Source: Clostridia bacterium
Lineage (GTDB): Bacteria > Bacillota > Clostridia > Christensenellales > Aristaeellaceae
NCBI GenBank assembly: GCA_017545905.1
Contig: JAFWXL010000033.1
Location: forward strand, 1 to 52,145
Length of the DNA stretch: 52,145 nt
Direction of reading: 5' to 3'
The notes beneath the pieces are model-generated. The model did not search any database and had not been told where the DNA came from. It saw only the letters and a program-made list of their open reading frames with translations. The position numbers and the translations under genes were made by a program. This document shows, in pieces, positions 27,177 to 45,283 of the stretch (position 1 is the first letter of the stretch; the number at the start of each line of letters is the position of its first letter).

Positions 27177-30100
27177 ATGAAAAACACATTGTTTCGCTCT
27201 GTGATCCGCGCGCTGGCGCTGTGCCTCGTGCTGCTCGCCGTCCTGTCCGCGCAGGCGCTGGCGGCCTACAGCGGCACGCCCAAGACGCCCATGAAGATCA
27301 CGTCCTCCACCTATGCCTATTTCGGCCTGACTGAGGAAAACTGGAGCCCGTTCAACGGCTATTACGGCATCCGCAATGCCGAGGAGCTCTATGGCTTTGC
27401 CCAGCTTGTCAACGGCGGCGACCGCACCGCCAAAGCCGTGCTCCTGCAGGATATCGTGGTCAATGAAACCGTGTCCGGTTCCGGCACCAAGCATGTGTGG
27501 ACGCCCATCGGCTCCGGCGAGGATAACAGCTTCATAGGCGTCTTCGACGGCAACGGCCACACCATCAGCGGCCTGTATTACGACAATGCAAACGCCTCCT
27601 TTGTCGGCCTGTTCGGCGTCGTCGGCAAGTACCTCCAGAATGATTACGCATCCATCTCCAATGTGACGCTTGCCAATTCCTTTCTGCGCGGCATGGATCT
27701 GGTCGGCGGCATCGCGGGCCTGCTCGATGGCCGGAACGACCATATCAGCAACTGTACAATCGCCCCGAGCGTCACCCTCCGCGCCGCCACAAAGGATGAG
27801 GAGGCCTTTCTGGGCGGCATTGCCGGCGGCTACGGCTTGTCTTATCCTGGTCAGTACCCTGACCACTCGGTCAGAAACTGCGTCGTGCTCGGCTCCCTCA
27901 TCAAGGAAACCGCGGGCTGCTATGCCGGCGCGGTGGTCGGCGATTACTCCTCAGCCTCCTCTCAGATGGATTACATCGAGGTTTCAAACTGCTATTACCT
28001 CGAAGACTGCCTGAAAATCAATAACTCCCCGTATAATTACGGCAAGGGCGGCGTCTACGGCCATGCCTCTGACGACGGCTGCACCCGGCTTGCCTCCCTC
28101 TCCGCCAGTCACACCCACCTTCCCGTCAGCGTCGCTGCGACGACGGCGAACTGCACCTATCCCGGCGTCACCGCCCATTCCTTCTGCCTCATCTGCGGCG
28201 AGGTGACAAGCGGCACGAAAACCGTGATCCCCGCCGACGGCACGTCCCACGTCTACAACCCCACCAACTGCGTCACCGCGGGCGTCTGTCAGGCCTGCGG
28301 CCACAACAAGGGCAAGGACCCGGACAATCACAAGAGCGCTGAATACACCTACAAGCTCTCTTCCTCCGACCCGAAGAAGCACGATATCTTCCACAAGTGC
28401 TGCGGTGCGCTCGCCGCAAGCGCTGCGCACACGTATGTAGACTACGTCTGCACCGACTGCAAGACGCGCTGCCCGCACAACAGCTTCACAGGCGGCGTGT
28501 GCGACGACTGCGGCACCAAGGGCGATCTGTACATTTATTACGAATGGAACGCCGGACAGCTCACGCAGAAGTACGGCAGCGCCGCCGCCAAGACCTATAA
28601 CGGCGAGACGTCCCTGAGCAGCGGCTGGTACATCGTTAAAAAAGACTGGAACGTCAAGCAGCGCATCATGGTCAACGGCAATGTGCATCTCATCCTCGCC
28701 GACGGCGTGCATCTGAATGCGGAATACGGCATTTCGCTCTATCCGGAGAAATCGCTGCACATCTATGCCCAGTCCACGTCTCTCTCGACGGCGGGCAAGC
28801 TGACCGCCATAGGCGACTACGTGCATAACGCCGGCATCGGCGGCTCCACTCTTGTGACGTCTGGTCAGAAGGAATACGCCCTCGACCCGAGCGCCGGCAA
28901 TCTCACCATCCACGGCGGCGTCATCTCTGCCACGGGCTCTTCAGCCTCCGCAGGCATCGGCGGTGTAGACCCCAACGGTGTGGGCGGCAACGTCGTCATC
29001 TTCGGCGGCCATGTGACGGCGAAAGGCGGCGATAATGGCGCCGGTATCGGCAACGGCGGCGGCTACTACGACCTCAGAGCCGGCTGGCTCACCGTCCGCG
29101 GCGGCACCGTCAGGGCGGAGGGCACAAAAAGCGGCACCGGCATTGGCAGCGCGAGTACCCACGGACGCGGCGCTGACGTCCGCATCACGGGCGGCAGCGT
29201 CTTAGCCATCGCCGGATTCGATCCAGAAGCCGGTTATACCCTGCAGCCCATCGGCGGCGGCAAGGACAGGCTTACCAGTGGCACCCTCAAGAACGCGGAT
29301 AACGGCGACAACCTCTCCCTGTACACCCTCGTCCTCGACACCGCGGCGGATTCCGCGCAGGTGAATGCCATCTCCGGCACGGCGGCGGCCTCCTACGGCG
29401 TCAGCGACGTGTATGCGCAGGGCGGCAAGCTCTATTTCTACCTGCCCAAGGAGACGGACATCGCCTCCGCCGTCAGCACCGTCACCGCGGACGGCAAAAC
29501 CTATTACTACAACGAAACAAACGAAAGCGGCGAGCATCTGTATACCCTGCACGTCCACAGCTGGGGCTATGCCGCCGGCGACAGCGACGGCGACGGCACG
29601 AACGACACCATCACCGCCACCTGCTCGTCGAGCAAGGGAGAGTGCCCCTCGGGCCGCTGCAGCGTGACGCTTTCCGCCCCCGCAGACCTCACCTACGACG
29701 GCTCCTCCAGGGACGCCGTCCTCACCTATGACAGCTGGGCCTTCGGCGAAGAGAACAAGCCCGAAATCACCTACAACGGCGTCTCCCGCACGGACGTGAC
29801 CGGCAGCCCCGTCACCGCCTCCATCTCCCTGGGCGGCGAGACCGTCACCCTCTCCTACACCCTTGCAAAGGCCCCCATCGCCTCCGTCACGCTGGATGTG
29901 ACGGCCCCCGTCGCCGGCGCAGCCCCGCAGGCGAGCATCACAGGCCTCACGGGCTGCAGCGGCGCCATCGTCTGGACGCCTTCCCCCGAGACCTTCGATT
30001 ACAACACCGCATACGCCGCTTCCGTGACCCTCGTCCCGGACGGCAACCACTTCTTCCCCGCCGCGCCCGACGCGGCGGGCTGGACGGGCGCGCTCAGCGC

Positions 30101-32162
30101 GGACGGCAGCGCGGTCTATACCCGCTCCTTCACCACCGCCCTGCGCAAAATCGTCTCCGTCACGCCGCCCGCTCTGGCAGCGTTCGGCGCTTACCACGCA
30201 GACGCCGCCTCCGCGATCGCGGCACTCCCGCAGACGATCACCGTCGCCCTGGAAGCAGGCGGCAGCGGTTCTCTTCCCCTCACATGGGCAGCAGAGGGCG
30301 CGTATGATCCCACCCCCTCCGCATCCAACACTTTCCACTGGACGGCGGCCAACACAGCCTATGATGAAAACGACTGTGTGCTCACCGGCACATGCGTCAT
30401 CGCCAATGCGGCGCCCATCCCCGTCGTCAACGGGGCGAACGACGCCTCGCGCACCTACGACGGCCAGCCCTTTGACGTGAGCGCCCTCTTCACCTTCGGC
30501 GAACACGCCGGCACGCCTGCCTATGCGCTCGTCGCCGGCGACACGGCCTACGCCTCGCTTCAGGAGAACAAGCTCACCATCATGAAGGCCGGCGAGTTCA
30601 GCATTCAGATGACCACCGCCGCCCATGGCGCGTACGGCGAGGGCGCTCCGGTCGTCGCCAGGCTCACGGTCGGCAAGGGCACGCCCGTCACCCAGAGCGA
30701 CGTGCCCACAGGCTTCACCGCATGGTACAGCCAGACGCTGGCCGACGTGAACCTCAACGCCACGGCGCATCCGCTGGGCACGTGGTCCTGGGCGGACGAT
30801 ACGCTCAGCGTCGGCAACGCCGGAGCCTCGGGCAACGCGTTCCCCGTCGTCTTCATGCCTCATGACGACGGCCTCTGGAACACGGTGACCGGCCTCACGG
30901 CGAGCATTTCCGTCTCCAGCGCGGACACGGGCCTTGCCGTCTCCCCGCAGGACGCTGCGCATATCTACGGCGACACCTTCTCCGTCACCGTCGCGGTCAC
31001 GGCCCAGCAGCCGGACCTGCGCATCCGCGGTCTGCTCGGCAGCCGCTCCATCCCCGCTCCCGGCTCGGTCAGCATCGAGCACGGCGGCAATCGCTGGCAG
31101 CAGAGCGCCACAAACGGCGACACGCTCACCTTCCCGTTTGACACCGTCGCGGAGGGCTTCCTCCCCGGCGGCTACACCCTCCCGGTCACCTATACCACCG
31201 ACGGCAACATGAACGCCCAGACGGCTGAGCTGCGCTTCTCCGTCGCCTATCTCACCGAGGATGAAAACGGCAATCCCATCCCGGACGCCGTGCCCGGCGC
31301 TCCCTCCTCCGGGGAATGGTATCGTGAAGCGCCCGCACTCACCGCGCCCAACGGCTATCAGGTTTCCACGGGCAACGGCCCGGACGCCTCCTGGGGCGAC
31401 AACACGGCGCTGACCCCTGTCGAGGGCGAAAACGAGTACACCTATTATCTCAAAAACGAGGATGGGCAGATCGCCGAAAAGAAGATTCCCCTCAAGGTGG
31501 ACCTCACCGCGCCCGCCGTCTCCGAAACCACCGTCACCGCGACCGATGCCACAGCGGAAATCACCGTCAGCGCAGAAGATGCGCATGCCGGCGTCGCGTC
31601 CATCGTGCTGACGGCCCCCGACAGCAGCGTGTCCATCACCGACAACGGCGGCGGCTCCTTCTCCCTGTCGGGCCTCACCCCCGGAAAAGAGCACACCTTC
31701 ACCCTCACCGTCAAGGACAACGCGGGCAATCAGACCACCCTCCCCGTCACCGTCCTCGCCTCGCCTGCTGTGCGCATCACTGCGCCGCTGGCGCCCACCT
31801 CCGTTTCCGCCGTCTCCGGCCAGAGCGTGGTGCTCAGCGTCACCGCAGAGAACGCATCCGCCTTCAAGTGGTATCGCAGCACGGACGACGGCGCGACCTT
31901 CGCACCCATCAAGGATGCGAACGCACCGGATCTGAACCCCGGCGCATTGGAGCTTTCCCACAGCGGCCATCAGTTCTTCTGCCGGGTCTATGGACACAGC
32001 GGAGTCCTCTTTGCGGACAGCCCCGTCTTCACCCTCACCGTCAAAGAGCCGGTGCTCCTCCCTGAGACCGGCGACCAAAGCGTCCTCCTGCTGTGGATGC
32101 TGCTCCTCGCCGTCTCCCTCTGCGCGCTTCCCCTCTTGCCCAGGCGCACAAAAGACGCGTAA
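27177..32162 (+). CDS. Giant LPXTG-anchored surface protein with GLUG-like, carbohydrate-binding-like and Ig-like parts
   Basis: A 1661-residue secreted, cell-wall-anchored protein. The signal peptide is residues 1-30 (RALALCLVLLAVLSAQALA). Residues about 55-280 are GLUG-like beta-helix repeats (FIGVFDGNGHTISGLYYDN, LVGGIAGLLDG). About 320-450 is Cys/His-rich with CxxC knuckles (CLICGE, CQACGH, CTDCKT, CDDCGT). About 455-690 has repeated GG-hV-A-G-GAGIG units as in carbohydrate-binding beta-helix domains. About 830-1600 is a series of MBG/Ig-like beta-sandwich segments. The C-terminus LPETG (1628-1632), a hydrophobic helix and RRTKDA form a sortase signal. Such proteins usually bind host or plant glycans. 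No catalytic domain was recognised. It is a single-gene unit with its own promoter and terminator; ligand unknown. Confidence 0.85.
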   Translation: MKNTLFRSVIRALALCLVLLAVLSAQALAAYSGTPKTPMKITSSTYAYFGLTEENWSPFNGYYGIRNAEELYGFAQLVNGGDRTAKAVLLQDIVVNETVSGSGTKHVWTPIGSGEDNSFIGVFDGNGHTISGLYYDNANASFVGLFGVVGKYLQNDYASISNVTLANSFLRGMDLVGGIAGLLDGRNDHISNCTIAPSVTLRAATKDEEAFLGGIAGGYGLSYPGQYPDHSVRNCVVLGSLIKETAGCYAGAVVGDYSSASSQMDYIEVSNCYYLEDCLKINNSPYNYGKGGVYGHASDDGCTRLASLSASHTHLPVSVAATTANCTYPGVTAHSFCLICGEVTSGTKTVIPADGTSHVYNPTNCVTAGVCQACGHNKGKDPDNHKSAEYTYKLSSSDPKKHDIFHKCCGALAASAAHTYVDYVCTDCKTRCPHNSFTGGVCDDCGTKGDLYIYYEWNAGQLTQKYGSAAAKTYNGETSLSSGWYIVKKDWNVKQRIMVNGNVHLILADGVHLNAEYGISLYPEKSLHIYAQSTSLSTAGKLTAIGDYVHNAGIGGSTLVTSGQKEYALDPSAGNLTIHGGVISATGSSASAGIGGVDPNGVGGNVVIFGGHVTAKGGDNGAGIGNGGGYYDLRAGWLTVRGGTVRAEGTKSGTGIGSASTHGRGADVRITGGSVLAIAGFDPEAGYTLQPIGGGKDRLTSGTLKNADNGDNLSLYTLVLDTAADSAQVNAISGTAAASYGVSDVYAQGGKLYFYLPKETDIASAVSTVTADGKTYYYNETNESGEHLYTLHVHSWGYAAGDSDGDGTNDTITATCSSSKGECPSGRCSVTLSAPADLTYDGSSRDAVLTYDSWAFGEENKPEITYNGVSRTDVTGSPVTASISLGGETVTLSYTLAKAPIASVTLDVTAPVAGAAPQASITGLTGCSGAIVWTPSPETFDYNTAYAASVTLVPDGNHFFPAAPDAAGWTGALSADGSAVYTRSFTTALRKIVSVTPPALAAFGAYHADAASAIAALPQTITVALEAGGSGSLPLTWAAEGAYDPTPSASNTFHWTAANTAYDENDCVLTGTCVIANAAPIPVVNGANDASRTYDGQPFDVSALFTFGEHAGTPAYALVAGDTAYASLQENKLTIMKAGEFSIQMTTAAHGAYGEGAPVVARLTVGKGTPVTQSDVPTGFTAWYSQTLADVNLNATAHPLGTWSWADDTLSVGNAGASGNAFPVVFMPHDDGLWNTVTGLTASISVSSADTGLAVSPQDAAHIYGDTFSVTVAVTAQQPDLRIRGLLGSRSIPAPGSVSIEHGGNRWQQSATNGDTLTFPFDTVAEGFLPGGYTLPVTYTTDGNMNAQTAELRFSVAYLTEDENGNPIPDAVPGAPSSGEWYREAPALTAPNGYQVSTGNGPDASWGDNTALTPVEGENEYTYYLKNEDGQIAEKKIPLKVDLTAPAVSETTVTATDATAEITVSAEDAHAGVASIVLTAPDSSVSITDNGGGSFSLSGLTPGKEHTFTLTVKDNAGNQTTLPVTVLASPAVRITAPLAPTSVSAVSGQSVVLSVTAENASAFKWYRSTDDGATFAPIKDANAPDLNPGALELSHSGHQFFCRVYGHSGVLFADSPVFTLTVKEPVLLPETGDQSVLLLWMLLLAVSLCALPLLPRRTKDA

Positions 32163-32425: not shown

Positions 32426-33175
32426 TTATTGCGCAAAGCTTGTCAGCACAGTCTTTGTGTGTCCGCGCTTTTCCAGCTCGCGCATCACCGCTTCGCCGTT
32501 GCGCATGCGCGCATCATCGTCGCACTTATTGAGCACGATGTGGAATTCGCGCATGCCGACGTCTTTTCGCGTGCCTCTTTCAGAGAGCAGGATCTCTGCC
32601 ATATCCGCCGCCGTCAGCACATGATCCATGCCGCAGCCCAGCAGCGCCGCGACGTACTGCGGCCTGTGGCAGACCGCTCCGACTGCGCCGCCGAGCACCT
32701 CAGCGCCCATCACGCCGATGACAATATCGCTCTGCGGCAGGATCACCGGCTCATGCTCCGCCGGCACTTTGCAGGCAAGCCTGTGCGCGCCGTCCGCCTC
32801 GATGAGAACCGCGTCCGCCTCCTGCAGCAATTCATTCATCAGGCTGTCCTGCGGCGCGCGGAATTTGCCGTTTTCCGTGCGCTCGCCGCATGCCGCATAT
32901 CCGCCCGCTGCCCAGCAGGCACGGCAATCCTCCATGCTGCCGCAGACATGCGCCGGGCAGGCCATACGCGTGGTCGTCATGATCACCGTGCGCGCGCCAC
33001 GCGCGGCAAAGCACTGCGCCAGATATTCCAGCAGCGTTGATTTACCGCCGCCGCCCACCAGCGAAATCACATGGCGTTTTCCGTCGAAGAACGGAAAATA
33101 ATCCTCCGGCGCGCCGCATTGCAAGGCGTCCCCGCTGCGCCAGCGCGCCGTCGGTTCGATCATCTGTGTCTTCAT
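32426..33175 (-). CDS. yqeC: YqeC, selenium-dependent hydroxylase accessory protein
   Basis: A 249-residue P-loop protein of the YqeC family, which genome surveys associate with selenium-dependent molybdenum hydroxylases, probably in cofactor or selenium insertion. VISLVGGGGKSTLLEYLA is the Gly-rich P-loop, VIMTTTRM follows, VLIEADGAHRLACKVPAEHEPVI is the family's best-conserved stretch, and IGVMGAEVLGG and HIVLNKCDDD come later. The start overlaps the flavodoxin gene by ATGA, with GAGGAG upstream, so it is the last gene of the FecCD operon. No hydroxylase, selD or molybdopterin gene is in the window. The family call is firm; the exact biochemistry is not known. Confidence 0.85.
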   Translation of the reverse strand: MKTQMIEPTARWRSGDALQCGAPEDYFPFFDGKRHVISLVGGGGKSTLLEYLAQCFAARGARTVIMTTTRMACPAHVCGSMEDCRACWAAGGYAACGERTENGKFRAPQDSLMNELLQEADAVLIEADGAHRLACKVPAEHEPVILPQSDIVIGVMGAEVLGGAVGAVCHRPQYVAALLGCGMDHVLTAADMAEILLSERGTRKDVGMREFHIVLNKCDDDARMRNGEAVMRELEKRGHTKTVLTSFAQ

Positions 33176-33732
33176 GTCTGCTCCTCATTCAGCCACTTGG
33201 CCAGCGCAATCACGTCCGCCACAGCTTTTTCATCCTGATCCGCCGGAATCTCGTCGGTATTGGGCGAGCAGACCCAGTGCTCTGCAAAGCCCTTTGCATT
33301 CAGCATGCGGCACAGCGCGCGCACATGATGCAGCGCCATATCCGCATTGCCCTTGCCGCCTGCGGTCAGGATCACCGCCGCCTTCTTTTCGCGCAGCTCA
33401 AGCGGCCGATTGAGAAAGAACTTCGCCGCATGCCACGGCTGCAGGCGGCTCATCAGGCTGAGCATCTGCCCGGGCAGCGTGCCGTAATAGACGGGCGAGG
33501 CGATGACGACATTGTCAAAATCGTCGTCGTAAATCGTCTGCATGCCGTCACGCACGGCGCACTTTGCCGTCGTCCAGCAGCTGCGGCAGTCCACGCACGG
33601 CGCAATGCCCGAGCGGAAGGCAGAAATCTCGATCACTTCTCCCGAAAGCTTTGTCCTGAGCGTTTCAATCAGCGCTGCGGTATTGCCCTGCGGGCGCGGG
33701 GAGCCGTTGAGAATCAGCGTCTTTCTGGCCAT
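33172..33732 (-). CDS. Flavodoxin-family NAD(P)H-dependent FMN reductase-like protein
   Basis: A 186-residue flavodoxin-fold protein. The start is MARKTLILNGSPRPQGNTA (AAGGAG, 6-base spacing). NGSPRPQGNT is the FMN phosphate loop. CVDCRSCWTTAKCAVRDGM is the Cys-rich segment typical of the iron-sulfur flavoprotein/azoreductase-like branch, possibly binding an Fe-S cluster or metal, and SPVYYGTLPGQM contacts FMN. It lies 20 bases after the substrate-binding gene and overlaps yqeC by 4 bases. In a metal or chelate uptake operon it may reduce the imported metal or cofactor; this role is inferred from position only. Confidence 0.8.
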   Translation of the reverse strand: MARKTLILNGSPRPQGNTAALIETLRTKLSGEVIEISAFRSGIAPCVDCRSCWTTAKCAVRDGMQTIYDDDFDNVVIASPVYYGTLPGQMLSLMSRLQPWHAAKFFLNRPLELREKKAAVILTAGGKGNADMALHHVRALCRMLNAKGFAEHWVCSPNTDEIPADQDEKAVADVIALAKWLNEEQT

Positions 33733-33752
33733 GGTTTCTCCTTGCGTATCCA

Positions 33753-34793
33753 TCAGTTCATCCTGCCGATTGAATTTTTCACCAGCACGTCGTATGCTTC
33801 GCGCGTCAGTTCGCTGTGATAAAACAGCGCAAAGTGCCGCGCCGTCTCTTCATACATATCCCAGTCCGCCTCATCCGGATAGAGCACCTTGCCCGTCCAC
33901 AGCATGCCCAGAAGGCGCTGCACGCCCGGCGGGAAGCCCATCCAGTTGTACGGGCCAACGGGCACCTCGTAATATGTATTCTGCGCGACTGCGCTGACCG
34001 CCTGCCACAGCGGATCATTCTGCGCTGTTTCAAACGCAGAGGACTGCGAGAAGAGGATCACATCAGGATCCCATGCAAGGATCTGCTCCATATCCACCTC
34101 GTTGCCCGTGCCCTTGGAAGAGGGTGATTCCAGCACAGCCACGTTGTCGGATAGCATATCGATCACCGCGCTGTGATAGGAATCCTTCGCAATCACGCCA
34201 AGGCCCTCCACGCCTACAACGTAGAGCAGGCGCTTCTTTTCCACGCGATCCGCAAGCGACTTCACGCGCGCATATGCGTCAGCGCAGTAATCGCTGAGCA
34301 CCTTCGCCTCCTGCTCCATGCCCAGCAGCTCGCCAAGGCGTGCATAGGTCTTGTCCAGACTGTCGATGTACGCGCTGATATGCACAAACGGCAGCCCCGT
34401 CTGCGCCTGCAGTTCATTCAGATCCTCGACGATATCGCCGCGCGGCTCACCCACGTCGATAACCGCCTGCGGCGCAGCGGCGATGAGTTCTTCCAGATTC
34501 ACATTGCCCTTGCCGCCGTAGATCTGGCCGATCACCGGCAGATCGTATTTTTCGGTATCGATATACGGTCTGGACGCGTCGTCCCATGCGCTGCACAGGC
34601 CCACGAGCTTCTCCGGCGCAATGGCGAACACGGCGATCTGACCCAGCGGGCCGGTGACCACGACGCGCTCAATCGCTTCATCGAGCACGATCTCGCGGCC
34701 AGCGTCGTCCACAAACACGCGTTCATCCGCGCAGCCCAGTGCGGCAAGAAGCATCAGCAGCAGCGCAATCAGACAGGTTATCCGTTTCTTCAT
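33753..34793 (-). CDS. Metal/chelate-type ABC substrate-binding protein (FecB/BtuF fold)
   Basis: A 346-residue exported binding protein, class III (two lobes joined by a long helix). The signal peptide MKKRITCLIALLLMLLAALGC ends in a near-lipobox (ALGC), so it is probably a lipoprotein. The mature start VFVDDAGREIVLDEAIERVVV is the family opening. Then come NLEELIAAAPQAVIDVGEP, ILAWDPDVILFS and the C-terminal ...YNWMGFPPGVQRLLGMLW typical of ligand-contact regions. Family members bind ferric siderophores, heme, cobalamin or molybdate/tungstate. It is the fourth gene of the operon, after a methyltransferase, 39 bases downstream. The ligand is unassigned; the yqeC neighbour makes an oxyanion such as molybdate worth testing. 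Confidence 0.88.
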   Translation of the reverse strand: MKKRITCLIALLLMLLAALGCADERVFVDDAGREIVLDEAIERVVVTGPLGQIAVFAIAPEKLVGLCSAWDDASRPYIDTEKYDLPVIGQIYGGKGNVNLEELIAAAPQAVIDVGEPRGDIVEDLNELQAQTGLPFVHISAYIDSLDKTYARLGELLGMEQEAKVLSDYCADAYARVKSLADRVEKKRLLYVVGVEGLGVIAKDSYHSAVIDMLSDNVAVLESPSSKGTGNEVDMEQILAWDPDVILFSQSSAFETAQNDPLWQAVSAVAQNTYYEVPVGPYNWMGFPPGVQRLLGMLWTGKVLYPDEADWDMYEETARHFALFYHSELTREAYDVLVKNSIGRMN

Positions 34794-34832: not shown

Positions 34833-35555
34833 TCATTTACGGAAAATCCGCGCCGGCTGCGGAATATCCTTCACTTGAAGATGCACCATGCCCGCCCGCC
34901 GCATATGCGGCAGATACAGCGGGTAAGGCTGATCGCCGGTATGGATCAGCTTACTCATGAGGAATTCATCGGTGATCAGCGCCGGATCATCCCGGCTGTA
35001 AAGCGCATAAAAGCGCCGCGCCTCATCAATGCTCTCAAACGGCTGGCCCATGTCCAGCTCAAATTCCGCAGCGTCATAGGGAATGCCCAGCTGATCCAGC
35101 GTGCGCCGCGCATCACGGTAGCCGCTGTAGCGCACGGGATGCGCGCCGACGGAAAAGCGATGCAGGTCGTAATCGCGCGAAATATAGAACACATCGCCCG
35201 TGCAGCAGGCCGCCGCCATGGACAAGGCTTCGCGCATCTGCGCAAAGAAGCAGAAGATCATCGCGTCGTAGGGCGTTTCGGGCACATGCGTCCTTGCATC
35301 CGCCAGACACGCGTCAACGCGCGCATCGCCTGCTGACGACAGCTGAAAAAGCGCCTCTTCGCTGATATCCAGCGCCGTGACGGCATAGCCCTGCCGCGCC
35401 AGCTCGCTTGCCAGCGCGCCCACGCCGCAGCCGGCGTCGCATACGCGCGCGCCCGGCTGAAGACAGGGCGTGATCTGCCCGGCAAGCGTTTGGACCGCGC
35501 TGCCATGCGCATACGCGCGTGCAAGCCACGCCGCCGATTCCCTCGTCCAGATCAT
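34833..35555 (-). CDS. Class I SAM-dependent methyltransferase in the ABC operon
   Basis: A 240-residue Rossmann-fold methyltransferase. Motif I is ARVCDAGCGVGALASELA (SAM loop), motif II is VTALDISEEAL, and YDAMIFCFFAQMREAL is the post-motif region. The C-terminal part (SGYRDARRTLDQLGIPYD onward) is not recognised and probably sets substrate choice. Its start overlaps the ATPase gene by 4 bases, so it is translated with the transporter, which is not usual for plain siderophore or B12 importers. A role in modifying the imported ligand or a metallophore is an inference from location. No radical-SAM or synthase gene for a ligand is present. Confidence 0.82.
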   Translation of the reverse strand: MIWTRESAAWLARAYAHGSAVQTLAGQITPCLQPGARVCDAGCGVGALASELARQGYAVTALDISEEALFQLSSAGDARVDACLADARTHVPETPYDAMIFCFFAQMREALSMAAACCTGDVFYISRDYDLHRFSVGAHPVRYSGYRDARRTLDQLGIPYDAAEFELDMGQPFESIDEARRFYALYSRDDPALITDEFLMSKLIHTGDQPYPLYLPHMRRAGMVHLQVKDIPQPARIFRK

Positions 35556-36331
35556 ACGATATCACCCGCCAGTGCCGGCACAATCACGCGGCCGGCCGTC
35601 GTTTTGGCAAAGATGACATCCACGCCATAGAGCCGGGAAATCAGCTCAGGTGTGAGCACGTCCTCCGGCCTGCCCAGCGCGGCGACGCGCCCTTCCGACA
35701 GCGCCAGAATCCGCGTGGCAAACGTCAGCGCATGCTGCGGATTATGTGTGGAGAGCAGCACGCCATAGCCCTCCTTCGCCAGCTCGCGCACCAGCTGCAG
35801 AATGCGCAGCTGATTGCCGTAATCCAGCGCGGAGGTCGGCTCGTCCATGATCAGAATCTCGGCCTGCTGTGCAATCGCACGGCTGACAAGCACCAGCTGC
35901 TGCTCGCCGCCGGAGAGCCGGGTGAAATCGCGCTGCGCCAGATGCGCCGCGCCCACGCGCTCAAGCGCCGCCATCGCGCGTTCCACCTGCGTTTTTCCCG
36001 GCTGGGAAAAGGGCGAAAGCTGGCGTGCGGTGCCCATGAGCACGGTATCGAGCACCGTGTAGCTGAACGTAGGCTGGTGAATCTGAGGAATATACGCAAG
36101 ACGTCTTGCGGTCTCGCGCCGGGGCAGCGTGCTCAGGTCGTCGCCATTTGAGGTGATCGTGCCCGCATAGCTGTCGAGGCGGCCGAGAATGCAGCGAAAC
36201 AGCGTGCTCTTGCCCACACCGTTGGGGCCGAGCACAGAGAGAAACTCGCCTTTTTCAAGCCTGAAGGAAACATCCCGGAGCACCTCGTGTCCATCATAGG
36301 CAAAGGAGAGCTTTTGGATCTCAAGGCTCAC
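35552..36331 (-). CDS. FecCD-type ABC transporter ATPase
   Basis: A 259-residue ATPase of the iron-complex/B12/molybdate (class III) importers. Walker A is LGPNGVGKSTLFR, the signature is RLSGGEQQLVLVSRAIA, Walker B is [12 protein letters not shown], and the H-loop is LLSTHNPQHAL. The C-terminal tail DVLTPELISRLYGVDVIFAKT is typical of FepC/FecE/BtuD-like members. It overlaps both the permease gene upstream and the methyltransferase gene downstream by 4 bases, a tightly coupled set. Confidence 0.93.
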   Translation of the reverse strand: MSLEIQKLSFAYDGHEVLRDVSFRLEKGEFLSVLGPNGVGKSTLFRCILGRLDSYAGTITSNGDDLSTLPRRETARRLAYIPQIHQPTFSYTVLDTVLMGTARQLSPFSQPGKTQVERAMAALERVGAAHLAQRDFTRLSGGEQQLVLVSRAIAQQAEILIMDEPTSALDYGNQLRILQLVRELAKEGYGVLLSTHNPQHALTFATRILALSEGRVAALGRPEDVLTPELISRLYGVDVIFAKTTAGRVIVPALAGDIV

Positions 36332-37347
36332 AGCAGGCTCTCCTTTCTGGTCATCAGATAGATGAAAAACGGCGCGCCGATCAGTGCGGTCAGAATGCCG
36401 ATGGGAATCTCGGTTGCAAGCAGATTGCGCGACACGTTATCCACCAGCAGCAGAAACACCGCGCCCATGAGCATGGACGCCGGCAGCAGATGGCGGCAGT
36501 TATTGCCCACCAGCCGGCGGCTCAGATGCGGAATCACAAGGCCCACCCAGCCGATCATGCCGCTGACCGATACGCTCCCCGCCGTCAGCAGCGTTGCGCT
36601 GAGCACGACGATCAGGCGAAGACGGCCCGTGTTCGCGCCCAACGCCGTGGCTTCTTCCTCGCTGAGGGTGAGCAGATTGATGCGCCAGCGAAGCAGCAGC
36701 AGCGGCAGCGCGCCAAGCGCCATCGGGATCAGCGCAAACGTCACGTCGCCAAGGCGCGCGCCGGAGAGGCTGCCCATCATCCAGTAGGTGATCTCCGGCA
36801 GCTGATCGGACGGATCGGCGACGAGCTTGATATACGACGCGCCTGCAGAAAAGAGCGAGGAGATCATCACGCCCGAAAGCAGGATGGACACCGAGCGCGC
36901 GCCCTTTGTCCTTGCAGAGACCAGATACACCAGCGCGATGGTCAGCATGCTCGCAGCAAAGGCGAATACCGTCACGCCCCCGCGCGCAAGGCCAAGCAGA
37001 ATCGCCAGCGCCGCGCCGAAGCACGCGCCCGAGGATGCGCCCAGAATATCCGGTGCAGCCATGGGATTCTGAAACACGCTCTGATACGCCGCGCCGGCCA
37101 AAGACAGGCACGCACCCACCATGCACGCCAGCGCAATGCGCGGCAGACGCACGTTCATGATCACGGCCTCCATGCTCCTTGACCATGTTTCCTGCATCGG
37201 GATCAGCCGAGAGAGCAGAATGCGGATCACCTCCAGCGGCGACATGTCATATCTGCCCAGCACAAACGAAAACACAAACAGCACGGCCAGCAGCGCGCCA
37301 AGCATCGCCATGCTCAGCGCCGCGCGGCGGGAATCCGGCATCTTCAT
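36328..37347 (-). CDS. FecCD-family ABC transporter permease
   Basis: A 339-residue permease with about ten helices, working as a homodimer with the adjacent ATPase. The start is taken at MKMPDSRRAALS (37347; AAAGGA with 9-base spacing); an ATG two codons upstream is also possible. Family motifs: LPRIALACMVGACLSLAGAAYQSVFQNPMAAPDILGASSGACFG, RWRINLLTLSEEEATALGAN and GMIGWVGLVIPHLSRRLVG, the coupling region with the ATPase. The open frame continues upstream to 37560, but that part is the structured leader, not protein. First gene of the operon. Confidence 0.92.
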   Translation of the reverse strand: MKMPDSRRAALSMAMLGALLAVLFVFSFVLGRYDMSPLEVIRILLSRLIPMQETWSRSMEAVIMNVRLPRIALACMVGACLSLAGAAYQSVFQNPMAAPDILGASSGACFGAALAILLGLARGGVTVFAFAASMLTIALVYLVSARTKGARSVSILLSGVMISSLFSAGASYIKLVADPSDQLPEITYWMMGSLSGARLGDVTFALIPMALGALPLLLLRWRINLLTLSEEEATALGANTGRLRLIVVLSATLLTAGSVSVSGMIGWVGLVIPHLSRRLVGNNCRHLLPASMLMGAVFLLLVDNVSRNLLATEIPIGILTALIGAPFFIYLMTRKESLL

Positions 37348-37375
37348 ATCCATAAATCCTTTCGGGATGCATTCG

Positions 37376-37421
37376 CAAAAACAACAAAACGTCCGTCTTT
37401 CCATGAGCGGAAAAACGGACG
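37376..37421 (-). terminator. Leader terminator (attenuator) of the FecCD operon
   Basis: On the minus strand a 13-bp stem (37409-37421 with 37390-37402, one G-U pair, 6-base loop) is followed by TTTTGTTGTTTTT. It lies 140-180 bases after the promoter and before the first gene, so it must be read through or prevented for the operon to be expressed. Confidence 0.88.
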
Positions 37422-37560
37422 ACACAATCAAATCCTGCACGGCAGGACAGGGTATATGCGCATTCCGTCTCCTTTTCAAACAGGAAGGCCGCGCCGTTTC
37501 CCGCGCGACCCCGGCCCCGATTCCATAGCCATTGCCGTAGGAAGGAGGGCTCGAAGACAA
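37422..37560 (-). promoter_or_regulatory. Structured 5' leader with switching pairings; riboswitch or leader-peptide attenuator
   Basis: Between promoter and terminator the minus-strand RNA can fold into an outer helix CUCCUU (37542-37547) with AAGGAG (37469-37474). This encloses a GGUCGCGC/GCGCGGCC hairpin (37503-37510 with 37487-37494), and UCCUGC-CGU-GCAGGA (37433-37447) follows. The segment GGAGACGGA (37464-37472) can instead pair with UCCGUUUUUCC in the 5' arm of the terminator, giving an antiterminator that excludes the outer helix. AAGGAG also serves an ATG at 37461-37463 opening an 11-codon ORF (MRIYPVLPCRI) that stops at 37428, just before the terminator. I could not match it to cobalamin, FMN, molybdenum-cofactor or T-box consensus by eye. 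Confidence 0.65.
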
Positions 37561-37565
37561 GCTTT

Positions 37566-37594
37566 ATTATAGAATCGCGTTCAGCAGTTGTCAA
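37566..37594 (-). promoter_or_regulatory. Consensus promoter of the FecCD-yqeC operon
   Basis: On the minus strand, TTGACA (37589-37594), exactly 17 bases and TATAAT (37566-37571): a perfect sigma-A-type promoter. Such strength fits control by the downstream attenuator rather than by a weak promoter. Confidence 0.92.
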
Positions 37595-40900: not shown

Positions 40901-42577
40901 ATGGCGAAGTTTCTGACCCTGAAAAAATCCAACTGCAAAAACTGCTATAAATGTATCCGCCATTGCCCGGTGAAATCCATCCGCTTCTCCGGCAATCAGG
41001 CGCATATCATCGACAACGAGTGCATCCTGTGCGGCCGCTGCTTCGTCGCCTGTCCGCAGAATGCCAAGCAAATCGTCGATGACACCGAGAAGGTCAAGGT
41101 CATGCTGCAGTCAGGCGAGCCTGTGTTCGTCTCTCTCGCGCCCTCCTTCATCGCCAATTATGACGGCGTGGGCATCAACGCCATGCGCGAGGCCCTCATG
41201 AAGCTCGGCTTTGCCGGCGTCGAAGAGACCGCCATCGGCGCAACGATCGTCAAAACCGAATACGAGCGCATGATCCGCGAGGACAACAGGAACATCATCA
41301 TCTCCTCCTGCTGCCACTCGGTCAATCTGCTCATCCAGAAGTATTTTCCGGTCGCCCTGCAGTATCTGGCGGACGTAATGTCCCCGATGCTGGCCCACTG
41401 TCAGGATATCAAGCGCCGCTATCCGAACGCAAAGACCGTGTTCATCGGCCCGTGCGTCGCCAAGAAGGACGAGGCCGATCATTATACCGGCCTCACCGAT
41501 GCGGTAATGACCTTTGAAGAGCTGACCAACTGGCTGAATAAGGAAGGCATCGAGCTTAAAAAGGAATCTGACCAGACCGATGAGAGCCTCGCGCGCTTCT
41601 TCCCGGTGACCGGCGGCGTGCTCAAGACCATGACGCAGGACAATCCCGATTTCACCTACATGGCCATCGACGGCGTGGAAAACTGCATCGAAGCGCTCAA
41701 GGACATTGAAAACGGCGTCATCTCGCACTGCTTCATCGAGATGAACGCCTGCGCCGGCGGCTGCATCAGCGGCCCGGTCATGGAAAAATACCATCGCACC
41801 CCGGCCAAGGACTTTATCGCCGTGTCCAGATATGCCGGTAAAAAGGACTTCGACGTGCCTCAGCCCGATCCGCTTCGCCTGCGCAAGAGCTTCTCGCCGA
41901 TCGATCTGGAAAGCGCCATGCCCAGCGAAACCGAGATCATGGGCATCCTGCGCCAGATGGGCAAGTACCGCCCTACTCAGGAGCTCAACTGCGGCTCCTG
42001 CGGCTACAACACCTGCCGCGAAAAGGCCATCGCCATCTATCAGGGCAAGGCCGACGCCTCCATGTGCCTGCCCTATCTCAAGGACAAGGCAGAGAGCTTC
42101 TCCGATTCTATCGTGCGCAACACGCCCAACGGCCTGATTGTGCTTAATGAGAACCTCGAGGTGCAGCAGATCAACGCCGCTGCGCGCAAGATCATGAATA
42201 TCCGCGCCGCCAGCGACGTGCTGGGCGAGCCTGTTGTGCGCATTCTGGATCCGATGATCTTCATGAACGCACTCGAGTCGCGCCTTGGCATCATCGAGCA
42301 GCGCGAATATCTGGCTGAATACAAGCGCTATGTCGAGCAGACCGTTATCCATGACAAGGAGAGCCGCCTGCTGATCTGCATCATGCGCGACGTCACCAGC
42401 GAGGAGCGCGAGCGTGAGAAGAAGGAAAGCATCTCCCGCCAGACCATCGAGGTCGCCGACAAGGTCGTCGACAAGCAGATGCGCATCGTGCAGGAAATCG
42501 CCTCTCTGCTGGGCGAAACCGCCGCTGAAACCAAGATTGCCCTGTCCAAGCTGAAGGAGTCCATCACCAATGAATGA
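40901..42577 (+). CDS. Sensory-type [FeFe]-hydrogenase with PAS domain (HydS-like)
   Basis: A 558-residue protein. Two [4Fe-4S] ferredoxin sites (Cys 12/15/18/22 and 41/44/47/51) lead into an H-cluster domain: L1 ISSCCHSVN (135-140), L2 IGPCVAKKDE (183-191), L3 EMNACAGGCISGP (280-292). Then a Fe-S domain (NCGSCGYNTCR...C, Cys 364/367/372/389) and a PAS domain (about 405-500), ending in a coiled-coil-like helix. L1 has His where catalytic enzymes have Pro (TSCCP), consistent with a sensor rather than a bulk catalyst. Known group C sensory hydrogenases share this H-cluster plus PAS layout and sit next to phosphatase genes. It overlaps the phosphatase gene by 8 bases. The H2-sensing role is inferred. 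Confidence 0.88.
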   Translation: MAKFLTLKKSNCKNCYKCIRHCPVKSIRFSGNQAHIIDNECILCGRCFVACPQNAKQIVDDTEKVKVMLQSGEPVFVSLAPSFIANYDGVGINAMREALMKLGFAGVEETAIGATIVKTEYERMIREDNRNIIISSCCHSVNLLIQKYFPVALQYLADVMSPMLAHCQDIKRRYPNAKTVFIGPCVAKKDEADHYTGLTDAVMTFEELTNWLNKEGIELKKESDQTDESLARFFPVTGGVLKTMTQDNPDFTYMAIDGVENCIEALKDIENGVISHCFIEMNACAGGCISGPVMEKYHRTPAKDFIAVSRYAGKKDFDVPQPDPLRLRKSFSPIDLESAMPSETEIMGILRQMGKYRPTQELNCGSCGYNTCREKAIAIYQGKADASMCLPYLKDKAESFSDSIVRNTPNGLIVLNENLEVQQINAAARKIMNIRAASDVLGEPVVRILDPMIFMNALESRLGIIEQREYLAEYKRYVEQTVIHDKESRLLICIMRDVTSEEREREKKESISRQTIEVADKVVDKQMRIVQEIASLLGETAAETKIALSKLKESITNE

Positions 42578-43742
42578 TCTTTGCGCGGATATCGGATACA
42601 AAAGCATCAACCACGTCGGCGAGCAGCTCTGCGGCGACCACGTCGATATCGTGGAGCAGAGCGACGGTTCCACCGTCATCGTTCTGGCCGATGGTCTGGG
42701 CAGCGGCGTAAAGGCGAGCATCCTCTCCACGCTGACCTCCAAGATCATCTCCACGATGCTCGCCGAAGGCCTGCCCATCGAGGAATGTGTCTCCGCCATT
42801 GCCGCCACGCTGCCCGTGTGCTCGGTGCGCGGCGTCGCCTATTCCACATTCACCATCATTCACCTGCGCGACAACGAGACCGCAGAGCTCATCCAGTACG
42901 ACAACCCGCAGATCATTCTCATCCGCAATGAGCGCAGCTGCGAATATCCGCGCACGGAGATGAACATCGGCGGCAAGAGGATCTACAAGTCCGTCGTCAA
43001 GCTGCAGGAAAACGACATCTTCGTCGCCATGAGCGACGGCTGTCCGCACGCCGGCATCGGCCTGAGCTACAACTTCGGCTGGAAGCACGAGGACATCGCC
43101 GCCTTCATGGAGACCATGTCCGTGGCCGGCTATACCGCCAAGACGCTCTCCACCATCCTCATCGACGAGGTCAACAGACTCTACGGCGGCAAACCCGGCG
43201 ACGACGCCACTGCATGCATCGTGCGCATCCGCAAGCGCGTGCCCATGAATATGCTCTTCGGCCCGCCTTCAAACCGCGACGACTGCAACCGGATGATGAG
43301 CCTGTTCTTCTCCAAGGAGGGCAAGCACATTGTCTGCGGCGGAACGACCTCCTCCATCGCCGCCAAGTATCTGGGCAAGCCGCTCGTTCCCACGCTCTCT
43401 TTTGAGCGCAGCGACATACCGCCCATCGCCGAGATCGAAGGCGTCGATCTGGTGACCGAGGGCGTCATCACGGTCAACAAGGTCGTCGAGTTCGCCCGCG
43501 ACCACGTAAGCAGCAACGAGCTCTACGAGCAGTGGAGCATGCACCGCGACGGCGCATCCCTGATTGCGCGCCTGCTCTTTGAGGAGGCAACCGATATCAA
43601 CTTCTACGTCGGCCGCGCAGTCAACCCGGCGCATCAGAACCCGGATCTTCCGATCAATTTCAACATCAAGATGAATCTTGTGGAAGAACTGAGCAAGTGT
43701 CTGAAGCAGATGGGCAAGCGCATCAAGGTCAGCTACTTCTAA
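42570..43742 (+). CDS. SpoIIE/PP2C-type serine phosphatase with C-terminal extension
   Basis: A 390-residue protein. Residues 1-225 are a PP2C/SpoIIE-type phosphatase with metal-binding aspartates in CGDHVDIV, VIVLADGLGSGVKAS, VAMSDGCPHAG and GKPGDDATACIV. Residues about 228-390 (from MNMLFGPPSNRDDCNRMM) form a further domain that I do not recognise; it contains HIVCGGTTSSIAAKYLGK and FARDHVSSNELYEQW. Its ATG lies inside the last codons of the sensor gene (8-base overlap), so the two are co-translated. It probably dephosphorylates a regulator when the hydrogenase sensor changes state; the target is unknown and no kinase is nearby. Confidence 0.85.
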   Translation: MNDLCADIGYKSINHVGEQLCGDHVDIVEQSDGSTVIVLADGLGSGVKASILSTLTSKIISTMLAEGLPIEECVSAIAATLPVCSVRGVAYSTFTIIHLRDNETAELIQYDNPQIILIRNERSCEYPRTEMNIGGKRIYKSVVKLQENDIFVAMSDGCPHAGIGLSYNFGWKHEDIAAFMETMSVAGYTAKTLSTILIDEVNRLYGGKPGDDATACIVRIRKRVPMNMLFGPPSNRDDCNRMMSLFFSKEGKHIVCGGTTSSIAAKYLGKPLVPTLSFERSDIPPIAEIEGVDLVTEGVITVNKVVEFARDHVSSNELYEQWSMHRDGASLIARLLFEEATDINFYVGRAVNPAHQNPDLPINFNIKMNLVEELSKCLKQMGKRIKVSYF

Positions 43743-43864
43743 CCGGGCCGTGCCCGAATCCGCATCCGAACAGGCTAAACACAATCAAGTGATTCAGTGC
43801 ACGCTGCTTTGCATTCGTGAAATCAACCTTTCGGGTGTTTCAGACGAGATAAAGTGAGGAATCC

Positions 43865-45283
43865 ATGAGAAAATTCGATACAAAGGTTCAATACCTCAAA
43901 TACAAGGTGCTGCGCGAGGTCGCGCGCGATGCGTGGAACGGCACGCTGCTGGATAACCTGCTCAATATCCCCAAGATCATTGCGCCGGGCAAGGTGCCGA
44001 CCATGCGCTGCTGCATCTTCAAGGAGCGCGCCATCCTCGGTGAACGCGTGAAAATCGCCATGGGCGGCGACAAAAGCAACAACAACGTGATCGAGGTCAT
44101 CGATATCGCCTGCGACGAATGCCCGGCTGCCGGCTACGAGGTTACGGCCTCCTGCCGCGGCTGCCTTGCGCACCGCTGCGAAGACGTTTGCAAGCGCGGC
44201 GCGATCACCTTTGACCACAACCATGTCGCCCATATCGACAAGAGCAAGTGCGTGGAATGCGGTCAGTGCGCCAAGGTCTGCCCGTATACTGCAATCATCC
44301 ATCACCAGCGCCCCTGCCAGACGGCCTGCAAGGTGAAAGCCATTTCCATCAACGACGATGGCGCCGCTGCCATCGATAACGAGAAGTGCATCTCCTGCGG
44401 CGCGTGCGTGTATCAGTGCCCGTTCGGCGCGATCATGGACAAGAGCCAGATCGTGGACGTCATCAACATCCTGCGCGAAAGCGCTTTCGGCGCCAACTAC
44501 AAGGTCTACGCCGTGGTCGCCCCGTCCATCGCCAGTCAGTTCACCTATGCCAAACTGGGCCAGGTGATCACAGGCCTGAAGAAGATCGGCTTCCATACGG
44601 TCGTTGAGGCTGCGCTGGGCGCGGACATGGTCGCCATGTGGGAATCCAGAGAGATTGCTGAAAAGGGCTTCTTGACCAGCTCCTGCTGCCCGGGCTTTGT
44701 GCAGTATATCAAGAGCGCATTCCCGGCGCTTCAGCAGTATATCTCCCACAATCCCTCTCCAATGGCCGCGATGGGAAAATACATCAAGAAGACCGATCCG
44801 ACGGCCAAGATCGTTTTCATCGGACCATGCACAGCCAAGAAGATGGAGATGCAGCGCGAGGACGTGCGCCCGTACATCGACGCCGTCATGACCTTTGAGG
44901 AGCTGCAGGCGCTCTTTGACAGCCGCGAATTCGACATCAAGAACCTCGAGGAAGATGTGCTGGACAATGCCTCCTACTTCGGCCGCATCTTCGCGCGCGT
45001 CGGCGGTCTGACCGACGCTGCCGCACAGGCGCTCAAGGAGCAGAACATCGACTTTGAGATCAAGCCCGAGGTCTGCGACGGCATTGAAGCCTGCAAGATT
45101 GCCCTGCTCAAAAAGAGCAAAAATGCACTTGCCGCAAACTTCATTGAGGGTATGGCCTGCTCCGGCGGCTGCATCGGCGGCGCCGGCTGCCTGACCCACG
45201 GTCCCAAGGATAAGACGCAGGTCGACAAATACGGTCAGGAAGCCTTCGAAAAGACCATCTCCGACGCGATCTCGATGCTGTAA
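43865..45283 (+). CDS. Catalytic monomeric [FeFe]-hydrogenase (group B type)
   Basis: A 472-residue cytoplasmic hydrogenase. The N-terminal Cys-rich part has CRGCLAHRCEDVC (97-109), CVECGQCAKVC (129-139) and CISCGACVYQC (175-185) for Fe-S clusters. The H-cluster domain carries all three canonical motifs: TSSCCPGF (271-278), IGPCTAKKME (319-328) and EGMACSGGCIGG (428-439). It makes or uses H2 with ferredoxin as partner. Lacking a C-terminal NADH module, it is monomeric. It follows the phosphatase gene by 122 bases with AGTGAGGAA before the ATG. No promoter was seen in the gap, so it is probably in the same operon as the sensor. A similar HydA2-HydS pairing is described in Ruminococcus albus. 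Confidence 0.92.
   Translation: MRKFDTKVQYLKYKVLREVARDAWNGTLLDNLLNIPKIIAPGKVPTMRCCIFKERAILGERVKIAMGGDKSNNNVIEVIDIACDECPAAGYEVTASCRGCLAHRCEDVCKRGAITFDHNHVAHIDKSKCVECGQCAKVCPYTAIIHHQRPCQTACKVKAISINDDGAAAIDNEKCISCGACVYQCPFGAIMDKSQIVDVINILRESAFGANYKVYAVVAPSIASQFTYAKLGQVITGLKKIGFHTVVEAALGADMVAMWESREIAEKGFLTSSCCPGFVQYIKSAFPALQQYISHNPSPMAAMGKYIKKTDPTAKIVFIGPCTAKKMEMQREDVRPYIDAVMTFEELQALFDSREFDIKNLEEDVLDNASYFGRIFARVGGLTDAAAQALKEQNIDFEIKPEVCDGIEACKIALLKKSKNALAANFIEGMACSGGCIGGAGCLTHGPKDKTQVDKYGQEAFEKTISDAISML

What the first reader, a model, noticed from the sequence alone, without database searches (positions are those of the whole stretch)
37354..37594. FecCD-yqeC operon has a switch-like transcribed leader of unassigned class
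A perfect consensus promoter (37566-37594) is followed by ~140 bases of foldable RNA and a strong 13-bp terminator before the first gene. Two mutually exclusive pairings are visible: outer helix CUCCUU/AAGGAG (37542-37547 with 37469-37474) versus GGAGACGGA (37464-37472) with the 5' arm of the terminator. That is textbook OFF-switch geometry. I could not match it to a known riboswitch class by eye, so it may be new or a diverged metal/cofactor aptamer.
Basis: partly seen in the sequence, partly recalled or inferred. Interest (0 to 1): 0.72.

Follow-up and report, generated by a model that had tools for sequence, protein, structure and literature searches.

The report
Cofactor riboswitch on an importer operon
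The RNA leader belongs to a known class of switches that sense the molybdenum or tungsten cofactor, but the operon it controls may import that cofactor into bacteria that seem unable to make it, which would be a kind of transport system not known to us.

Summary
The leader is real but not of an unassigned class. Rfam RF01055 (Moco/Tuco riboswitch) matches window 37453-37568(-) at 67.3 bits, cut-off 36. Stem P3 is missing, as in the group Regulski 2008 proposed to sense tungsten cofactor. Promoter, terminator and antiterminator idea hold up: a transcriptional OFF switch, inferred.

The new part is the operon. In this genus, 7 draft genomes with it under such a leader, the window's included, show no MoaA over cut-off and no MoaC, MoeA or ModA, yet have xanthine-dehydrogenase-type enzymes or AOR. 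Of 78 family genomes with this RNA, 19 of 24 without MoaC carry it on this operon, against 7 of 54 with MoaC. Of 50 genomes picked for the permease, 23 lack MoaC and 21 of those have molybdenum hydroxylases.

Best reading: FecCD-ATPase-SBP imports the finished cofactor and the riboswitch senses the cargo. Main rival: a MolBCA-like molybdate/tungstate transporter. Nothing here shows transport or ligand.

The parts
37566..37594 (-). sigma-70 promoter, TTGACA (37594-37589), 17 nt, TATAAT (37571-37566); transcription start inferred near 37559, next to the first base of P1
   Evidence: start inferred from spacing
37453..37568 (-). RF01055 Moco/Tuco aptamer as matched by Rfam; the transcribed aptamer is about 37558-37467
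   Evidence: 67.3 bits, cut-off 36, model 1-135, P3 positions are gaps
37553..37558 (-). P1 5' strand GUCUUC
37514..37550 (-). P2 hairpin with the receptor-like bulge (CCUACG here, CCUAAG in the relative L037)
   Evidence: receptor described in PMC2408646
37486..37511 (-). P4 hairpin, GGAAAC loop; follows P2 after two bases, so P3 is absent
37476..37485 (-). P5, two-pair hairpin
37467..37472 (-). P1 3' strand GGAGAC, shared with the antiterminator
37464..37472 (-). antiterminator half GGAGACGGA, partner of the terminator's 5' arm (about 37419-37411)
37390..37421 (-). intrinsic terminator stem; U-rich tail 37389-37380
36328..37353 (-). FecCD/BtuC-type permease, first gene; in-frame ATGs at 37353, 37347 and 37341 after GAAAGGA (37363-37357); analysed from 37341 (337 aa)
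35552..36331 (-). ABC ATPase
34833..35555 (-). SAM-dependent methyltransferase-domain protein
33753..34793 (-). substrate-binding protein (Peripla_BP_2)
33172..33753 (-). FMN reductase/flavodoxin-fold protein
32426..33175 (-). YqeC (TIGR03172, 197.3 bits, cut-off 73.05)

Best explanation
The leader is a P3-less member of the Moco/Tuco riboswitch class acting as a transcriptional OFF switch. Without ligand, P1's 3' strand pairs with the terminator's 5' arm and transcription runs into the operon. With cofactor bound, P1 closes, the terminator forms and the operon is shut. The operon encodes a BtuCDF/MolBCA-like importer (permease, ATPase, binding protein) with a methyltransferase, an FMN reductase-like protein and YqeC. 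I propose that it takes up the finished, metal-loaded pterin cofactor (Moco or its nucleotide form, perhaps Tuco) from the surroundings, so that the riboswitch senses the cargo, as B12 riboswitches do on B12 uptake genes (recalled). In the window's species the cofactor would go on to the MocA-like and XdhABC-like proteins found elsewhere in the genome. Shown by computation: class, missing P3, structure and covariation, gene content, missing synthesis genes in drafts. Inferred: ligand, OFF direction, cargo. Rough odds: class 0.98, OFF attenuation 0.85, cofactor import 0.5.
For: Class; covariation in 33 RNAs. Attenuator; own antiterminator pairing averages -12.29 against -9.94 for swapped partners, 0 of 20,000 permutations as low, 36 of 41 leaders used. 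Window genome: PF20256 over cut-off in an XdhB-XdhC-XdhA-MocA-like operon (names by similarity, all below the NCBIfam cut-offs), GAKxxGE region kept; no MoaA over cut-off, no MoaC, MoeA_N, ModA or AOR. Genus, 29 genomes: of 15 without MoaC, 8 have a PF20256 enzyme or AOR and 7 of these 8 carry the RNA on this operon; none of the 7 enzyme-less ones has the RNA. All 7 also lack MoaA over cut-off, MoeA_N and ModA, so they could not load metal onto an imported precursor with MoeA. Family, 78 RNA-bearing genomes: operon-led in 19 of 24 without MoaC and 7 of 54 with it, Fisher p 2.2e-8, uncorrected for kinship. Named set: 23 of 50 permease-bearing genomes lack MoaC, 21 of the 23 have PF20256, the isolates Flexilinea flocculi TC1 and Lachnotalea glycerini DSM 28816 among them. 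On the permease tree (68 rows) the MoaC label needs 13 changes, at least 6 forced by starred branches. An XdhC-family gene lies beside the importer in 19 of 80 named loci, 9 of the 23 without MoaC.
Against: The permease also occurs with MoaC (27 of 50 named genomes), Acetobacterium and Desulfosporosinus among them, where plain metal uptake would serve. Its best solved relative is HI1471 (2nq2), the permease of the MolBCA molybdate transporter (name recalled). Outside the genus 11 of 17 RNA-bearing MoaC-lacking family genomes showed neither PF20256 nor an AOR-led leader; other molybdoenzyme families were not searched. G032 has PF20256, lacks MoaC and has no RF01055 hit; whether it has the transporter was not tested. 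3 of 13 controls without RNA and MoaC also have PF20256. Only 24 of 80 named permease loci have an R1-detectable leader; Flexilinea's has none. Free Moco is unstable. A P3-less RNA points to tungsten, yet of the enzyme families searched the window genome shows only PF20256. Only 10 of 36 antiterminators beat 95 of 100 shuffled arms, and the window's own was matched by 8 of 100. The genomes are mostly drafts; the window's is 78% complete.
Confidence: 0.5

Rival explanations
1. The operon is a MolBCA-like uptake system for molybdate or tungstate under the known Moco/Tuco riboswitch, i.e. ordinary feedback on metal supply. The MoaC-lacking genomes are then incomplete drafts, or hold idle molybdoprotein homologues.
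For: The permease's best solved match is HI1471 (239.1 bits); the binding protein matches HI_1472 more weakly (45.4 bits single, 79.5 by profile) than the uncharacterised 4pag and 4ovk. Regulski 2008 already places Moco RNAs on metal transporters. The permease is found in 27 of 50 named genomes that have MoaC. In this family leaders on modABC and tupABC are common.
Against: Metal alone is of no use for Moco enzymes without MoaA/MoaC/MoeA, yet the operon-led leaders are concentrated in MoaC-lacking genomes (19 of 24 against 7 of 54). Draft gaps are an unlikely cause: for the 7 genus genomes the product of their missing fractions is about 2e-6 (my arithmetic from completeness, assuming independence), and two isolates show the same pattern. 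XdhA-like proteins of the MoaC-lacking genomes are as close to the window species' as those of MoaC-holding ones (83-91% in 5, 74% in G032; 86 and 88% in two MoaC holders).
Confidence: 0.33
2. The transporter imports a precursor (cPMP or metal-free molybdopterin) and the cell finishes the cofactor.
For: MoaA and MoaC, the first steps, are missing; cPMP is the most stable intermediate (PMC2408646).
Against: MoeA_N, the metal-insertion step, and ModA are also missing in all 7 genus genomes. MogA, MoaD and MoaE were not searched.
Confidence: 0.08
3. The operon imports an iron siderophore, heme or a corrinoid and the riboswitch coupling is secondary.
For: FecCD/BtuC family membership.
Against: A Moco-class leader precedes this permease in 24 of 80 named loci from Bacillota and Chloroflexota, and XdhC-family or YqeC genes lie beside it.
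Confidence: 0.05
4. The leader is a new riboswitch class.
Against: RF01055 at 67.3 bits, cut-off 36.
Confidence: 0.01

Closest known systems
Moco/Tuco riboswitch, Rfam RF01055 (Regulski 2008, PMC2408646)
   Same: P1, P2, P4, P5, GGAAAC P4 loop, conserved junction letters; terminator-type expression platforms are described for the class
   Different: P3 absent (as in 58 of their 176); one receptor base differs; controls a FecCD importer that also occurs in genomes without Moco synthesis
MolBCA molybdate/tungstate transporter of Haemophilus influenzae (HI1470-1472; names recalled)
   Same: BtuC-type permease, best solved match 2nq2
   Different: binding protein closer to uncharacterised 4pag/4ovk than to HI_1472; operon partners MTase, FMN reductase-like, YqeC, elsewhere XdhC; present in genomes without Moco synthesis
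BtuCDF under cobalamin riboswitches (recalled)
   Same: works alike if the best reading holds: cofactor importer shut by its own cargo
   Different: other cofactor, other aptamer; B12 uptake is proven, this is not
Selenium-dependent molybdenum hydroxylase accessory genes (yqeB/yqeC/ygfJ; PMC2276186, PMC11448449)
   Same: YqeC in the operon; MocA/YgfJ-like gene beside xdh in the genome
   Different: YqeB and SelD were not searched; selenium use not tested
Orphan molybdoproteins (Peng 2018, PMC6147048)
   Same: molybdoprotein homologues without a complete Moco pathway
   Different: they suggest unknown synthesis steps or Mo-independent forms in the passages seen; here an importer is proposed

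Membership tests
RF01055 Moco/Tuco riboswitch | covariance-model score over the gathering cut-off | tested here: met
   67.3 bits, cut-off 36
RF01055 Moco/Tuco riboswitch | conserved, covarying P1, P2, P4, P5 | tested here: met
   30 of 41 pairs changed on both sides over all helices, P1 98.5% of cells paired; P5 itself hardly varies
RF01055 Moco/Tuco riboswitch | GNRA loop in P4 with receptor in P2 | tested here: inconclusive
   GGAAAC loop present; receptor CCUACG/UAUGG differs by one base from the usual CCUAAG
RF01055, P3-containing (Moco) form | P3 stem | tested here: not met
   P3 positions are gaps; two bases between P2 and P4
RF01055, P3-less (proposed Tuco) form | no P3, Tuco-related genes in the organism | tested here: inconclusive
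   P3 absent; no AOR found in the 78% draft; TupA not searched in it
RF01055 Moco/Tuco riboswitch | response to Moco or Tuco | not testable with these tools
   direct binding was not shown in PMC2408646 either
MolBCA molybdate/tungstate transporter | BtuC-type permease closest to HI1471 | tested here: met
   2nq2 best solved match, 239.1 bits
MolBCA molybdate/tungstate transporter | binding protein of the MolA (HI_1472) type | tested here: inconclusive
   HI_1472 fourth by both searches, behind 4pag and 4ovk
MolBCA molybdate/tungstate transporter | transport of molybdate/tungstate | not testable with these tools
   -
Cofactor importer under its cargo's riboswitch | importer kept where de novo synthesis genes are missing and dependent enzymes remain | tested here: met
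   7 genus genomes; 21 of 23 named; weaker outside the genus, 6 of 17
Cofactor importer under its cargo's riboswitch | cargo is the riboswitch ligand | not testable with these tools
   -
Selenium-dependent molybdenum hydroxylase system | YqeC | tested here: met
   TIGR03172 over cut-off
Selenium-dependent molybdenum hydroxylase system | YqeB and SelD | not tested
   no search made

The most novel reading that the evidence does not exclude
FecCD-ATPase-SBP with its methyltransferase/XdhC/YqeC partners is a bacterial importer of the finished molybdenum (or tungsten) pterin cofactor, shut by a riboswitch that senses its cargo. Many anaerobes, the window's species included, are cofactor auxotrophs that live on neighbours' Moco, which explains the 'orphan' molybdoproteins. 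A second, unrelated system (an S-component-like membrane protein plus a secreted Oxidored_molyb-domain protein under the same RNA class, in 4 of 24 MoaC-lacking RNA-bearing genomes) does the same.
Probability: 0.45. Interest if true: 0.9.

Novelty: new variant of a known kind. Interest (0 to 1): 0.7.

Why it matters
PMC9793310 (abstract, seen in passages) states the prevailing view that cells needing Moco must make it, with C. elegans as an exception that takes it from its bacterial food by unknown means. PMC6147048 (passages) reports several hundred organisms with molybdoproteins but no complete Moco pathway, unexplained. A bacterial Moco importer would explain such genomes, make Moco a shared good in gut and digester communities like B12, and give a handle on Moco delivery. 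Even if the cargo is metal oxyanion, the family offers a test of the P3 rule: here leaders on modABC are all P3-length, those on AOR all P3-less, and this operon has both.

Tried and rejected
Unassigned class: rejected. Chance hits RNA-OUT and HOTAIR_3 at E 2.2 and 4.7, far below their cut-offs: ignored. P3 as a clean Mo/W predictor for this operon: not supported; of 24 permease-led family leaders 5 are P3-less and 19 have P3-length (lengths and sequences), and in the genus P3-less ones occur with XDH only (G000, G071), AOR only (G273) or both (G135). Draft gaps as the cause of missing MoaC: judged unlikely, not excluded. Structure prediction of the binding protein and of the S-component-like protein was wanted but the tool was off; profile search of PDB sequences gave no match for the latter. 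Dropped before counts: 5 of 41 leaders (L120, L119, L071, L033, L073) before the permutation, for distant, aptamer-overlapping or duplicate terminators; 10 named loci that duplicate family genomes before the tree; tandem second copies and the contig-edge hit G244:C122 were not fetched; loci with little downstream DNA (for example L041, L052, L056) could not be classed. MoaC was searched in only 50 of the 80 named genomes.

Full report
1. What is there. On the minus strand a 12-of-12 sigma-70 promoter (37594-37566) is followed by an RF01055 aptamer (37568-37453, 67.3 bits, cut-off 36, E 4e-14 for the window), a terminator at 37421-37390, and a permease gene whose in-frame ATGs lie at 37353, 37347 and 37341. 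The start of transcription, inferred from promoter spacing, falls next to P1. The operon continues with ATPase, methyltransferase-domain protein, Peripla_BP_2 binding protein, FMN reductase-fold protein and YqeC.

2. The fold. From the Rfam alignment, P1 is GUCUUC/GGAGAC (37558-37553 with 37472-37467), P2 37550-37514, P4 37511-37486, P5 37485-37476; P3 is absent. On 33 relatives (alignment A1) 30 of 41 pairs show changes on both sides (shuffled mean 20.8, 0 of 500 as high; slid versions 16 to 23) and P1 pairs 98.5% of cells.

3. The switch. Cut off at 37410 or 37400 the RNA pairs 37469-37464 with 37419-37414 and P1 stays open; through the terminator it folds as terminator plus part of P1, with full P1 plus terminator 1.9 kcal/mol higher. 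Every one of 41 leaders given to one search had a terminator-like hairpin by my loose scan, a few of them distant or overlapping the aptamer. In 36 of them the pairing of P1's 3' region with the own terminator arm averages -12.29 kcal/mol against -9.94 with swapped arms, 0 of 20,000 permutations as low; this ignores kinship, and against shuffled arms only 10 of 36 are in the best 5%, the window's being matched by 8 of 100. In L125, L168, L136 and L112, where P1's 3' strand reads GGAGCA, the terminator arm reads UGCUUCC: a direct co-change. So ligand-dependent termination is well supported as geometry, not shown as function.

4. Relatives of the RNA. In 300 family genomes 78 have RF01055. Loci from all 78 were fetched. 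By downstream genes: 38 leaders on modA-type operons, all 131-144 nt; 25 leaders on ydhY-AOR-ydhW-type operons, all 107-112 nt, without the receptor and with GCAA-type P4 loops (representatives annotated); 24 on this permease and 4 on its binding protein alone; MoeA/MoaA-type and one tupA-type (L035, P3-less). Lengths stand in for P3 here. This agrees with Regulski's P3 rule for ModA, AOR and TupA; the permease operon is the exception, with 5 P3-less and 19 P3-length leaders.

5. Missing synthesis genes. The window's genome (2.53 Mb, 115 contigs, 77.78% complete) has no MoaA over cut-off, MoaC, MoeA_N, ModA or AOR but a PF20256 enzyme in an xdhB-xdhC-xdhA-mocA-like set (best NCBIfam scores below their curated cut-offs) with the GAKxxGE region kept (motif recalled). 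Over the genus's 29 genomes: MoaC 14, MoaA over cut-off 13, MoeA_N 11, ModA over cut-off 13, AOR 13, PF20256 18, RF01055 18. Of 15 without MoaC, 8 have AOR or PF20256 (G000, G135, G177, G265, G273, G238, G269, G032); the first seven have the permease-led RNA and none of MoaA over cut-off, MoeA_N, ModA; G032 has no RF01055 hit. The 7 enzyme-less ones have no RF01055.

6. Family and beyond. MoaC is found in 81 of 300 family genomes. Of the 78 RNA-bearing genomes 24 lack it. Leaders in these 24 are on the permease or its binding protein in 19, on the S-component-like pair in 4, on modA alone in 1 (G170); G040 has both a permease-led and a modA-led leader. With MoaC it is 7 of 54 (Fisher p 2.2e-8, uncorrected). 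Of the 17 outside the genus 4 have PF20256 and 2 an AOR-led leader, 11 neither. Of 80 named permease loci (336 relatives found, best 80 kept) the genomes of 50 were searched: 23 lack MoaC; PF20256 is in 21 of these 23 and in 22 of 27 with MoaC. Of 13 family controls without RNA and MoaC, 3 have PF20256. The label MoaC-minus needs 13 changes on a quick permease tree of 68 rows (37 without, 31 with MoaC), at least 6 forced by starred branches; 28 of 65 inner branches are weak.

7. Operon partners. Over 80 named loci the order is permease, ATPase, often methyltransferase, binding protein, then XdhC-family protein and/or an NTPase_1 protein. XdhC-family hits lie beside the importer in 19 of 80. 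In Flexilinea flocculi the order is methyltransferase, XdhC (PF13478 and PF02625 over cut-off), NTPase_1, permease, ATPase, binding protein; its XdhC scores below the NCBIfam cut-offs. XdhC proteins bind Moco and hand it to hydroxylases (recalled). The binding proteins are one family, 42-77% identical to the window's in 41 others.

8. Reading. The ligand of this RNA class in E. coli depends on MoeA and molybdate uptake but not on MobA (PMC2408646, parts 1-4 of 7 read), which points to Moco. Cells without MoaA, MoaC and MoeA that keep such an RNA on an importer, keep a MocA-like protein and hydroxylases, fit import of the finished cofactor. The rival, metal-oxyanion import, fits the kinship to HI1471 and the MoaC-holding genomes, but not the enrichment. 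Both could be true in different clades of the permease tree.

9. Print. Searches for a bacterial Moco importer or salvage (open-licence PMC papers only; 20 of 67, 1 of 1, 20 of 28 and 3 of 4 listed) showed none in the listings; PMC9793310 on dietary Moco in C. elegans was seen in passages, PMC6147048 in passages, PMC3766115 in passages, PMC11448449 and PMC2276186 in passages, PMC4031551 only in a listing. Regulski's supplements were not seen, so they may list this operon.

Noticed in passing
L189:433-1469, L191, L194, L050:860-1402(-), L076 (related genomes G123, G138, G188, G081, G257): P3-length RF01055 leaders with the start codon just after P1 precede a ~180-aa membrane protein (weak Trep_Strep, 19.5 bits, below cut-off 28.7, S-component-like by eye) and, in the two annotated, a 165-aa protein with an N-terminal membrane segment and an Oxidored_molyb domain (25.8-26.8 bits, cut-off 24). 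Four of the five genomes lack MoaC.
   Followed up: partly
L041-L064, L207-L210 (28 leaders, related genomes): Short 107-112 nt, receptor-less, GCAA/GUAA-loop Moco-class RNAs; 25 of 28 lie on ydhY-AOR-type operons, the other 3 have too little downstream DNA. About half fall under Rfam's gathering score (33-36 bits), so the Rfam cut-off misses many.
   Followed up: partly
for example G288:C107:10884-11150, G134:C64:37429-37705, G257:C311:6367-6634: Tandem Moco-class RNAs before modA-type operons: a strong copy followed at once by a weak second copy of about 25-37 bits.
   Followed up: no
window 40901-45283(+): [FeFe] hydrogenase cluster: group B1 enzyme at 43865-45283 (561.8 bits, cut-off 450), a second hydrogenase-like ferredoxin-domain protein at 40901-42577 and a SpoIIE-like protein at 42570-43742.
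   Followed up: no
window 27177-32162(+): 1661-aa open frame on the other strand, ending just beyond the operon's 3' end, with no Pfam family over cut-off.
   Followed up: no
window 37541-37524(-): The window's P2 receptor reads CCUACG where the relative L037 has CCUAAG, a single change in an otherwise kept tetraloop-receptor site.
   Followed up: no
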